Below, piece after piece: positions 10,121 through 31,139 of a DNA stretch of 37,830 nucleotides. The DNA is taken from NCBI GenBank assembly GCA_025358765.1, contig JANYIG010000126.1, positions 1-37,830 on the forward strand. Direction: 5' to 3'. The notes below the pieces were generated by a model. It saw only the letters and a list, made by a program, of their open reading frames with translations. It had not been told where the DNA came from and did no database searches. The stretch is from Candidatus Kapaibacterium sp. (GTDB taxonomy: Bacteria; Bacteroidota; Ignavibacteria; Kapaibacteriales; UBA4661). The translations under genes were made by a program, and so were the position numbers. The first letter of the stretch is position 1, and the number at the start of each line of letters is the position of its first letter.

Positions 10121-11239
10121 TCAGCGTTTCGCCGATGCTTTTTTGGATTTCGAGCTACGTACGCTCTTTTTTGCGGTAGATTTCGTGTGCTTTGAGCGTT
10201 TGGAGTGCTTCGAATATTTCACGTGCTTCAGCGCCGCTGCCGAAATTTCGTCGGAACCAGCTTTACGGGCAAGCGCAAGGATGGCACTCACGTAGTCGTC
10301 GCTGTTGTTGTAGTTGTAGAGGGCGCGTCGTTGCTGGTTTTTGTCGCTGCCCCAACCGGCAGTATTTAGATAATTTCCTACGCTGAACACCGCATCGGCA
10401 ATCTGGAAAAGATCAACTTTGCCATCACCGTTGCCGTCCACTGCAGCACGCAGATAGCTCGACGGCAAAAACTGCGACCAACCAAATGCGCCCGCCCATG
10501 AGCCGTAAAGATTCATAATTGGCAAGGGCAAAATCCCCTGCATCTGGCGCAATGCCAATAATTCTTTGATTGCCCACTTCGCTTTTTTCTCAGCGCGTTG
10601 TTCGATTTTTTCTTCTAACTCTTTTGCTTCTGCCTCTTCGCCATCGAATTTTTCGTGCATTGCCTTTTTGTTCTTTTCGATGAACTCCGGTTGTGCACAC
10701 ATTGCCACACTCAAATATACGCTCGGAACGTGATGTAGTCCCGTTATTGTTCCATGTTTTGTTTCCACCCACAACAACGCTGCCACGACTTCTTTGGGAA
10801 CGCCATATTTTTTCTCTTGTGCGGCAAGGAGAGAATCATGTTCTTCCACAAATTCTTGCACCGACCGCACGGAATAGTCCGTGTAATTATGGGAATAATC
10901 CGCTTTTTTCTTCTGCCCAATGACGTTGATTCGCACGAGTGTTTCGTTAAACGCCGTGCGTGGATCGTTGACAATCATTTTCACAAAGCCAGAATCCGCG
11001 CCTTGTGTGAGGAGTTCTTTGATGACAGGTGCGAAAAATCGTTCGTTAGGGGTTTTGCAAGTATCCGCTTTTGCTGTTCGTAATAAAAGTGATGAGGGTT
11101 TGCCGTCACTGCTACCAGATGCGCTCACGCTGAAATACTCAACCAGCAGCAACGTCGCAAGCGCAAACAGTGCCGTAAACAAAAAGGGTAGCCATTGGCG
11201 AACAGGTGAACGCGATATATTTGTTGATGCAGTATTCAT
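10121..11239 (-). CDS. MltB-like lytic murein transglycosylase
   Basis: 372 residues. A signal anchor at about 15-38 is followed by the periplasmic domain. The catalytic Glu is residue 159 in ALLWVETKHGT. Later come YGSWAGAFGWSQFLPSSYL and VDGNGDGKVDLF...DAVFSVGNYL, the signature of the SLT_2/MltB family, which cleaves peptidoglycan to 1,6-anhydro-muropeptides. A Lys/Glu-rich insert (about 205-240) interrupts the domain. The C-terminal 35-40 residues are a low-complexity Lys/Ser/His/Arg tail, unusual for the family and possibly wall- or nucleic-acid-binding. It lies 45 nt before the IcmF-like start on the same strand. Confidence 0.9.
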   Translation of the reverse strand: MNTASTNISRSPVRQWLPFLFTALFALATLLLVEYFSVSASGSSDGKPSSLLLRTAKADTCKTPNERFFAPVIKELLTQGADSGFVKMIVNDPRTAFNETLVRINVIGQKKKADYSHNYTDYSVRSVQEFVEEHDSLLAAQEKKYGVPKEVVAALLWVETKHGTITGLHHVPSVYLSVAMCAQPEFIEKNKKAMHEKFDGEEAEAKELEEKIEQRAEKKAKWAIKELLALRQMQGILPLPIMNLYGSWAGAFGWSQFLPSSYLRAAVDGNGDGKVDLFQIADAVFSVGNYLNTAGWGSDKNQQRRALYNYNNSDDYVSAILALARKAGSDEISAAALKHVKYSKHSKRSKHTKSTAKKSVRSSKSKKASAKR

Positions 11240-21006: not shown

Positions 21007-21052
21007 ACCCGCACCATTAGTGCTTGCGATTCAAAAAATGTGCTGTAAAAAG

Positions 21053-21790
21053 TTATGCGCTTTTACGGGCTGTACGTTTAGGCACAGCAGCGATAGGTTT
21101 TTCCACCACAGTTTTTTTGGCAGTTGGCGCTTTTTTTGCGGTCGTTTTTTTCGGCGCTTCCTCTACAGGAGCCGCTTTTTTTGCCGTTACTGCTTTTGCA
21201 GGTTTTTTTGGCGCTGTGTCTGCAATAGTCGTTTTTTTAACGGCTGTGCGTGGTTTTACTGCTTTTTTAGGCGTATCACTGACAGGGGCTTTTTCGACAG
21301 ATGCTTTTTTACCAGAAGTCGCTTTGGCGCTTGCTTTTGCACTTGTTTTTGTTCCCGTTTTTGCGGCTGGTTTTGCGCTTGCTTTTTTCGCTGGTTTTGC
21401 CGTTACAGCCGTTTGCCGCTCGATTTCCTCTTGTTCTTGCTTTACAATGTCCACCACAGGCGCATCACCCCACAACTTTTCAAGTTTATAATACTCCCGG
21501 GAATCTTGGCGGAAGATGTGGACAACCACGTCGAAAAAGTCTATCAAAATCCATTCTGCCGTATCCCGACCTTCCAAGCGTGGACGATCTAAGCCGGCAG
21601 TGTCGGCGGTACGAGCAAGCGTATCTGCCAGTGCGCGGGCGTGAACATCAGAATTGGCGGTGCAGATTAAGAAGTAATCGGTCGGCGAGGAATCTACATT
21701 GCGAAGGTCGAGCGCAAGAAGGTGTTCGGCTTTGAGGTTGTCGAGTGTACGGGCGCAAAATCCAGCAAGCAGAAGCGATGAATAGGTCAT
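21053..21790 (-). CDS. rsfS: Ribosome silencing factor RsfS with a long basic C-terminal tail
   Basis: 245 residues, about twice the usual family length. Residues 1-115 are a complete RsfS/Iojap domain: LRNVDSSPTDYFLICTANSD, then RPRLEGRDTAEWILIDFFDVVVHIF and REYYKLEKLWGDAP. This domain binds ribosomal protein uL14 and blocks subunit joining. Residues 130-245 are low-complexity Lys/Ala/Thr/Pro with repeated KKA, AKP and TAKK patterns, like a bacterial histone H1-like tail. The frame is open and in phase throughout, so the tail is translated. It may add RNA or DNA binding. The gene converges with the LytTR regulator (46 nt gap). Confidence 0.92.
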   Translation of the reverse strand: MTYSSLLLAGFCARTLDNLKAEHLLALDLRNVDSSPTDYFLICTANSDVHARALADTLARTADTAGLDRPRLEGRDTAEWILIDFFDVVVHIFRQDSREYYKLEKLWGDAPVVDIVKQEQEEIERQTAVTAKPAKKASAKPAAKTGTKTSAKASAKATSGKKASVEKAPVSDTPKKAVKPRTAVKKTTIADTAPKKPAKAVTAKKAAPVEEAPKKTTAKKAPTAKKTVVEKPIAAVPKRTARKSA

Positions 21791-29969: not shown

Positions 29970-31139
29970 CTACCGCTTGGACAGATGAGCTTTGAGCGCC
30001 AAAATATCGTCAATTGTGGTCGGGTCTTGCCCGCCCAACAGCGCAAGCCAGTAGCTTACCCAATCGCCCAAATATAGCAACATGAACGCCTGCGTAAGGA
30101 AGGACGAGCCTTCGGCGTGAACTTCGATGACCTGTTTTGTTCGTTTTTTCAGAATCGGTTTCATTGCATCAAAACGTGTAGCGATGCGCCCGTGTTCGCC
30201 GTCGTGCCGCAAAAGCACAATAGAACATTGTTTTGTGAACTGCGTCGGCAGCGTCCAACCGTTGATTTCGTTATGATTCATCTCTGGCACAATATTACCA
30301 AAGGCGATGTGTTTGGCGTTTTCCTGAAACTGCCCGCGCCACCGCATATTCACTGCTTCCAACAGAGGCGCTGAATAAAAAATGGGAATCGTGCTGTGGA
30401 GTTTTTCAGCAAGCGCAAACGCAGGGTTTTTTTTTGCATCGGGAACCGCATAGATACTTGCTTTTGCGTCCAAAAGTGGCAGAAGTTCTCTTATGGCTTT
30501 ACGAAGCTCTGCGGTGGATTTTTTGTTGATAGCATTGTGGTCGAGAAGCGTGGTCAAAAGCGGAAAAAACGACAATCCAACGGCACAGCGTGGCTGCAAA
30601 CCCGATGGAATCTGGATAACAGGAACGTTGTTTTTTTTCGCACGAGTGCTAAGTTCACCGCCAGTCGAGATACAAAGTAGGCGTTTTGTTTTTTTACGAG
30701 CCGCATCGAACGCTGCGAGTGTTTCTTCTGTTGCACCAGAATAGCTGCTGGCAACTACCGCCGTGTCTGCGTTCACACCGCTTGGAAGCTCATAACCACG
30801 ACTAACATTGACCGAAAATTCATCCACTCCGTGTGCCGCAAGACAGCATCGGAGCAAATCGCCGCCGATAGCTGAACCGCCCATTCCCGAAAACACCAGC
30901 GCTCGAAACGGCGTGGTATCGTTAAAATATGGTGCTTTTGAACCGATAGCGATGCCTTGCCGTACTTGCTCTGGGAAGCCTTGCAGAACGTCGAACATCC
31001 GCGATGTATCATGCTTCAAAAGTGGCGACTTTGGGAGCGACGAAGAAGTTGGCAATAGCTGTTTTTTTGCTGGTTGTGCCTTCGTTTGTGCCTTTACTCG
31101 CGTCTTTGCTTGTGTTTTGGGTTGTGTTTTTGTAGCCAT
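29970..31139 (-). CDS. Bifunctional phosphoglucose/phosphomannose isomerase (SIS domain)
   Basis: 389 residues. Two SIS halves: the first has FSGMGGSAIGGDLLR and VASSYSGATEETLAAF; the second has PIFYSAPLLEAVNMRWRGQF, the family-specific NHNEINGW motif and a C-terminal helix. This is the archaeal/bacterial PGI/PMI family that interconverts fructose-6-phosphate with glucose- or mannose-6-phosphate. The first 27 residues are a low-complexity Lys/Thr/Gln/Ala extension absent from typical members. The ATG at 31139 keeps this extension; no internal Met is available until after the domain begins. hicA follows 74 nt downstream on the same strand. Confidence 0.88.
   Translation of the reverse strand: MATKTQPKTQAKTRVKAQTKAQPAKKQLLPTSSSLPKSPLLKHDTSRMFDVLQGFPEQVRQGIAIGSKAPYFNDTTPFRALVFSGMGGSAIGGDLLRCCLAAHGVDEFSVNVSRGYELPSGVNADTAVVASSYSGATEETLAAFDAARKKTKRLLCISTGGELSTRAKKNNVPVIQIPSGLQPRCAVGLSFFPLLTTLLDHNAINKKSTAELRKAIRELLPLLDAKASIYAVPDAKKNPAFALAEKLHSTIPIFYSAPLLEAVNMRWRGQFQENAKHIAFGNIVPEMNHNEINGWTLPTQFTKQCSIVLLRHDGEHGRIATRFDAMKPILKKRTKQVIEVHAEGSSFLTQAFMLLYLGDWVSYWLALLGGQDPTTIDDILALKAHLSKR

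What the first reader, a model, noticed from the sequence alone, without database searches (positions are those of the whole stretch)
21053..21405. RsfS carries a histone-H1-like basic tail
After a normal RsfS domain the protein continues for about 115 residues of Lys/Ala/Thr/Pro repeats, doubling its length. Such tails bind nucleic acid in bacterial H1-like proteins. A ribosome silencer with an RNA- or DNA-binding tail could tie ribosome hibernation to the nucleoid or to RNA.
Basis: partly seen in the sequence, partly recalled or inferred. Interest (0 to 1): 0.5.

Follow-up and report, generated by a model that had tools for sequence, protein, structure and literature searches.

The report
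Ribosome silencing factor with lysine-rich tail
A common bacterial protein that shuts ribosomes down during starvation carries, in this little-known bacterial family, a long, floppy, positively charged tail that probably lets it grip RNA, and similar tails seem to have been added to the same protein more than once.

Summary
Window 21053-21790 (-) encodes 245 aa: an intact RsfS domain, a predicted helix (115-131), then about 114 residues predicted disordered. From residue 115 on, Lys is 24% and net charge +25. RsfS is single copy, and three uL14-contact residues named for S. aureus RsfS are kept. The tail is coding: its frame is open in 10 of 10 family genomes while both other sense frames hold stops; dN/dS is 0.18-0.36 in three pairs. 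In the 15.6% of this genome sampled, no other frame passed the strict rule for such a stretch. One of the ten (G004) has largely lost the lysines.

Basic extensions on RsfS recur: N-terminal in one genus of the order (3 of 3 genomes), and shorter C-terminal ones in a family elsewhere in the class (20 of 20 genomes with a match). The tree supports at least two changes for C-terminal ends and one for N-terminal.

Most likely it is a working RsfS whose polycationic arm binds RNA, first rRNA beside its 50S docking site. Nucleoid or polyphosphate tethering is possible but untested. 'Histone-H1-like' fits composition only. New variant of a known kind.

The parts
21053..21790 (-). rsfS, whole gene, 245 aa plus stop
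   Evidence: ORF listing and translation; the only PF02410 match in the genome
21446..21790 (-). RsfS domain, residues 1-115, with residues E73, D84 and Y101 aligned to S. aureus uL14 contacts Glu70, Asp81 and Tyr98
   Evidence: PF02410 at residues 13-107; alignment to 6sj6; contacts from passages of PMC7125091; RsfS structures are the best fold matches
21398..21448 (-). predicted helix, residues 115-131, joining domain and tail
   Evidence: AlphaFold2 model, block pLDDT 93-95 up to residue 130
21056..21397 (-). lysine-rich tail, residues 132-245, predicted disordered
   Evidence: coil with block pLDDT 51-69; composition from residue 115 on; sequence printed

Best explanation
A functional ribosome silencing factor with an added polycationic disordered arm. 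The RsfS domain docks on uL14 of the 50S subunit and blocks joining of the 30S, as in other bacteria (inferred from fold and kept contact residues). The arm of about 114 residues then makes non-specific electrostatic contacts with RNA within reach, first with 23S rRNA on the intersubunit face around the docking site. That would raise affinity for 50S or pre-50S particles, widen the blocked surface, or help late rRNA folding. Shown here: the intact domain, the tail, its open frame and its presence throughout the family. Probable: selection on its composition. Inferred only: RNA binding and any effect on subunit joining.
For: Domain and contact residues intact. Tail predicted disordered with net +25. 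Extension present in 10 of 10 family genomes, lysine-rich in 9. Tail dN/dS 0.24, 0.18 and 0.36 in three pairs. Random mutation to 40% identity leaves 11-12% Lys against 25-26% observed, 0 of 500 as high in each of three comparisons. Basic ends also on RsfS of genus g11 (N-terminal) and family f15 (C-terminal), at either end of the domain, which fits a non-specific electrostatic role. RsfS sits beside uL14, bL19 and 23S helix 95 (PMC7125091, passages).
Against: No binding was tested. G004 keeps the length but has 8% Lys and net +7. In the pair G002/G006 the mutation-only model matches or exceeds the observed Lys content in 59 of 500 runs, and the observed net charge per residue (0.104) is below the model mean (0.127); acidic residues there are kept as well as lysines (20 of 23 against 40 of 47). 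Tail dN/dS is about 5 to 10 times that of the domain. The other 45 RsfS read in the order do without such a tail.
Confidence: 0.5

Rival explanations
1. The tail is a nearly neutral low-complexity extension, gained and kept by repeat slippage and tolerated because it does not harm the domain.
For: Fast divergence and indels (pairs at 40%, 71% and 87% tail identity); A-runs of up to 8 bases in the tails; lysine loss in G004; weaker basic or low-complexity stretches on some unrelated proteins.
Against: Present in 10 of 10 family genomes; dN/dS below 1 in three pairs; Lys content above the mutation-only model in 4 of 5 comparisons; basic ends on RsfS in three lineages; no other strict hit in 15.6% of the genome.
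Confidence: 0.22
2. The tail binds polyphosphate made in starvation and gathers RsfS, with or without 50S subunits, at polyphosphate granules.
For: A polyphosphate kinase match (PF02503) in 9 of 10 family genomes. [quoted passage not shown] coli protein YihI binds polyphosphate (PMC12345225, passages). AlgP, with a KPAA tail, associates with polyphosphate granules (PMC9239181, passages).
Against: The kinase is common in bacteria, so its presence says little. The PASK definition (75% D/E/S/K in 20 residues) is not met by this tail, best 11 of 20; 1 of 10 relatives (G005) reaches 15. No binding data.
Confidence: 0.13
3. The tail binds DNA and ties RsfS-bound 50S subunits to the nucleoid, as H1-like tails are thought to do in AlgP and PhaF.
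For: Lys/Ala/Pro-rich composition. [quoted passage not shown]
Against: No H1-like family match and only one KPAA unit. The domain's known partner is the 50S, which offers RNA at once (inference).
Confidence: 0.08

Closest known systems
RsfS / YbeB / Iojap family (PF02410, TIGR00090), e.g. S. aureus RsfS (6sj5, 6sj6) and B. halodurans BH1328 (2o5a)
   Same: Domain, fold and uL14-contact residues.
   Different: Bacterial RsfS chains matched in the structure database are 105-152 aa; this one is 245 aa with a lysine-rich tail.
MALSU1, mitochondrial RsfS relative (5ool, 234-aa chain)
   Same: RsfS-type domain on the large subunit, with a longer chain.
   Different: The matched stretch lies at chain residues 120-196, so most extra length is N-terminal; its make-up was not examined here.
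AlgP / PhaF type H1-like tails (PMC9239181, passages)
   Same: Long, disordered, Lys/Ala/Pro-rich C-terminal region.
   Different: AlgP has 25 perfect KPAA repeats; this tail has one KPAA and Thr-rich units, and it is attached to a ribosome factor.
Low-complexity tails of bacterial ribosomal proteins and IF2 (PMC6821194, PMC11838494, passages)
   Same: Disordered extensions on translation proteins, mostly C-terminal on ribosomal proteins.
   Different: Those are on average mainly Ala and Glu with about 9% Lys in bacteria. In this genome the S16 tail is Ala/Glu/Lys and the IF2 frame is net acidic overall.

Membership tests
RsfS (PF02410 / TIGR00090) | Profile match over the curated cut-off | tested here: met
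   100.3 bits, cut-off 21.6; 99.1 bits, cut-off 56.9
RsfS (PF02410 / TIGR00090) | RsfS fold | tested here: met
   Predicted model; the first 10 fold matches are RsfS/Iojap-type structures, e.g. 6sj6_9 with target TM 0.89
RsfS (PF02410 / TIGR00090) | uL14 contacts corresponding to S. aureus Glu70, Asp81 and Tyr98 | tested here: met
   E73, D84 and Y101 by alignment; loss of anti-association activity on Y98 mutation is from the abstract of PMC9503621
RsfS (PF02410 / TIGR00090) | Binds 50S and prevents subunit joining | not testable with these tools
   Needs protein and ribosomes
Bacterial H1-like proteins (AlgP, PhaF, Hc1/Hc2 type) | Match to an H1-like protein family | tested here: not met
   Pfam at E up to 1 lists only RsfS and a weak Dictyostelium REP hit (E 0.17); NCBIfam adds only a sub-cut-off SepH hit
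Bacterial H1-like proteins (AlgP, PhaF, Hc1/Hc2 type) | Arrays of KPAA-type or lysine-rich repeats | tested here: not met
   One KPAA; weak 12/24-bp arrays with 63-84% matches over part of the tail
Bacterial H1-like proteins (AlgP, PhaF, Hc1/Hc2 type) | Disordered Lys/Ala/Pro-rich tail of net positive charge | tested here: met
   Lys 24%, Ala 23%, Pro 9%, net +25; low pLDDT
Bacterial H1-like proteins (AlgP, PhaF, Hc1/Hc2 type) | DNA binding | not testable with these tools
   Needs protein
PASK polyphosphate-binding motif | 20-residue window with at least 75% D/E/S/K and one Lys | tested here: not met
   Best window 11 of 20 here; 1 of 10 family members (G005) reaches 15

The most novel reading that the evidence does not exclude
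RsfS is a repeated target for adding a polycationic disordered arm at either end, which turns the silencing factor into a tether that gathers idle 50S subunits onto RNA, polyphosphate or the nucleoid: a condensate-like form of ribosome storage in Kapabacteria and their relatives.
Probability: 0.2. Interest if true: 0.65.

Novelty: new variant of a known kind. Interest (0 to 1): 0.42.

Why it matters
RsfS is widespread (match in 10 of the 14 control genomes) and usually compact (105-152 aa in the bacterial chains). Natural versions with and without a basic arm, placed at opposite ends in different lineages, give a ready comparison for asking what disordered basic tails do for a factor that parks ribosomes. 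If the tail changes 50S binding or localisation, it would link ribosome silencing with RNA, polyphosphate or nucleoid organisation.

Tried and rejected
Assembly or frame artefact: rejected. The tail frame is open in 10 of 10 family genomes, while the other two sense frames hold 2-14 stops each.

A genome-wide habit of equally strong tails: not supported in the sample. One strict hit, RsfS itself, and four loose ones in 15.6% of the genome; one of the four is a short frame that may not be a gene. With the looser rule, 0 hits in 310,502 bases of G007 and 1 in 335,009 bases of G017; neither sample held that genome's own rsfS contig.

A copy of the tail elsewhere in the genome: the tail search found itself plus two weak matches, E 0.08 (another frame of the same stretch, with stops inside) and E 0.27. 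Such scoring is weak for low-complexity queries.

Antisense gene over the tail: + strand frames 21020-21592 and 21024-21491 are open. One antisense frame has 0-1 stops in 10 of 10 relatives. I take this for a by-product of codon make-up; not pursued, so not excluded.

Tails on hibernation factors in general: HPF (PF02482) matched in 9 of 10 family genomes with open frames of 103-156 aa. I read only that of this genome, which has no tail.

Literature: six searches, of which I saw the listings (12-20 rows each, out of 13-378 hits), showed no paper on a lysine-rich RsfS tail. The library holds open-licence papers only. Seven papers were opened: passages of six, outline and abstract of one.

Limits: one search listed only its best matches; of these I read the 10 outside the order with open frames of 182 aa or more, so most families of the class and phylum were not read for tails. 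The tree is a quick one on 107 columns, and one row labelled C-tailed there, L042 of family f9, is a borderline result of my 20-residue rule. Starts of L007, L011, L031 and L032 were set to the nearest start codon and may be wrong; this touches total lengths, not tails. In the run L001 to L005 the 40% identity is assumed, not measured. One of the 58 RsfS frames read (G046) is interrupted by N. Names PDH E1 and kinase for two loose hits are my reading of the sequence; no call named them.

Full report
What is there. The - strand ORF 21053-21790 encodes 245 aa. Residues 13-107 match RsfS (PF02410, 100.3 bits; TIGR00090, 99.1 bits). It is the only PF02410 match in genome G000, 4.86 Mb in 362 contigs. 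The nearest named relatives, at 70% and 67% domain identity, are MAGs called Ignavibacteria bacterium Clear-D13 and Candidatus Kapaibacterium SKYG85, so the window comes from the Kapabacteria area; its exact taxon was not established.

Domain. The sequence search of solved structures gives 13 chains, best 2o5a (E 2.6e-27), then S. aureus 6sj6 and 6sj5. The AlphaFold2 model has 10-residue block pLDDT of 86-98 over residues 1-130 with a helix at 115-131, then coil with block means of 51-69. Foldseek puts RsfS-type structures first. The S. aureus contacts Glu70, Asp81 and Tyr98, described as conserved across bacteria (PMC7125091, passages), align with E73, D84 and Y101. The domain therefore most likely still docks on uL14 (inference).

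Tail. Counted from residue 115 the extension has 131 aa: Lys 24%, Ala 23%, Thr 13%, Pro 9%, no aromatics, net +25. In 758,516 bases of this genome (15.6%) it is the only frame passing the strict rule. Four others pass a looser rule: an N-terminus that I read as PDH E1, a kinase-like protein, the SLT_2 transglycosylase of the window (named), and a short frame that may not be a gene.

Relatives. One search covered 61 genomes; 58 had an RsfS match. I read the frames of all 58, 50 and 8, one of them (G046) interrupted by N. All 10 of the window's family f1 carry a C-terminal extension of 105-176 residues. In 9 of 10 it is 21-26% Lys with net +11 to +30; G004 has 8% Lys, 10% Arg, 19% Ser and net +7. 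All 3 genomes of genus g11 in family f9 carry instead an N-terminal lysine-rich extension of about 100 residues; these are the only g11 genomes held. The other 45 have no long lysine-rich extension; those of genus g23 in f9 end in 42 residues of mixed charge. Of 80 named loci the low-complexity rule flags 3 (L094, L115, L127), and L095 has the lysine-poor extension; by sequence all four are the same as f1 or g11 genomes already counted.

A further lineage. A phylum scan covered 395 genomes, 384 with a match, with the list of matches cut. Of the rows listed I read the 10 outside the order with open frames of 182 aa or more; 2 of 10, G284 and G245, had basic C-terminal extensions of 68 and 40 residues. 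Both belong to family f15 of the same class. There 20 of 22 genomes had a match, and all 21 loci have basic C-terminal extensions of 20-68 residues. On a tree of 102 RsfS domains (quick method, 107 columns) C-terminal basic ends need 4 changes, of which well-supported branches force 2, and N-terminal ends need 1. One of the 32 rows labelled C is the borderline L042. Opposite ends show that the g11 and f1 tails arose apart; for f1 and f15 one gain with losses in between is less simple but not excluded, since changes cannot tell gain from loss.

Selection. Three pairs within genus g3 give tail dN/dS of 0.24, 0.18 and 0.36, against 0.023, 0.021 and 0.073 for the domain; synonymous distance in the third pair is near saturation. 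Mutating tails at random to 40% identity leaves 11-12% Lys against 25-26% observed, with 0 of 500 runs as high in each of three comparisons; at 87% identity 1 of 500. At 71% identity (G002 to G006) 59 of 500 are as high, and observed net charge per residue lies below the model mean, so that pair does not show retention of charge. Lysines are kept more than Ala/Thr: 66 of 68 against 98 of 117, 40 of 47 against 64 of 94, and 52 of 72 against 30 of 89, counted from both sides of each pair; acidic residues are kept about as well in the first two pairs (26 of 28, 20 of 23) and not in the third (4 of 30). Aligning low-complexity sequence favours matched lysines, and slippage can help to keep composition, so selection on charge and disorder is probable, not proven.

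Mechanism. RsfS docks in a cavity of uL14, bL19 and 23S helix 95 and overlaps bridge B8 (PMC7125091, passages). A disordered arm of this charge starting there should meet rRNA first. I therefore favour an electrostatic arm that strengthens 50S or pre-50S binding or blocking; this is inference. [quoted passage not shown] Nucleoid tethering rests on likeness to AlgP (PMC9239181, passages), while repeat arrays and family membership do not match. A nearly neutral extension remains possible.

Known context. Low-complexity tails on bacterial translation proteins are documented (PMC6821194, passages; PMC11838494, passages). In this genome the S16 tail is Ala/Glu/Lys-rich and the IF2 frame is net acidic overall, so neither has the make-up of the RsfS tail. 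HPF of this genome has no tail. The listings of six literature searches showed no report of a lysine-rich RsfS tail, within an open-licence library.

Verdict. Real, present throughout the family, unusual for RsfS and recurrent; function unproven. New variant of a known kind, interest 0.42.

Noticed in passing
window 10121-11239 (-): SLT_2 transglycosylase whose last 35 or so residues are very basic (Lys/Ser/Arg/His), a second, shorter basic tail in the same window.
   Followed up: partly
window 29970-31139 (-): Phosphoglucose/phosphomannose-isomerase type protein (PF10432) with a Lys/Thr/Gln/Ala-rich N-terminal stretch of about 35 residues.
   Followed up: no
L252 19216 (+) of G000 and L198 16828 (+) of G017: Proteins that I read as PDH E1 have lysine-rich low-complexity N-termini in both genomes; no call named the family.
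   Followed up: no
L295, genome G000 contig C132: Ribosomal protein S16 lies in a 184-residue open frame with a long Ala/Glu/Lys tail, in line with the S16 low-complexity tails reported in PMC6821194.
   Followed up: partly
window 21056-21448 (-): Six A-runs of 7 bases in the tail's coding strand and 30 AAA against 1 AAG lysine codons; such runs could favour slippage.
   Followed up: partly
L263-L283 (family f15): RsfS with short basic C-terminal ends of 20-68 residues in all 21 loci; G428 has two nearly identical rsfS-bearing contigs.
   Followed up: partly
L107 and L123: Record titles seem odd for the RsfS they hold: a 'Desulfobulbaceae' contig whose RsfS falls inside family f3 on the tree, and a 'Bifidobacterium breve' MAG contig among these relatives. 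Possible misbinning or mislabelling.
   Followed up: no
L011 / L095 (G004): Family member whose extension is Ser/Arg-rich instead of Lys/Ala/Thr-rich. PMC11838494 (passages) reports shorter IF2 disordered regions in thermophiles; whether G004 is one was not checked.
   Followed up: no
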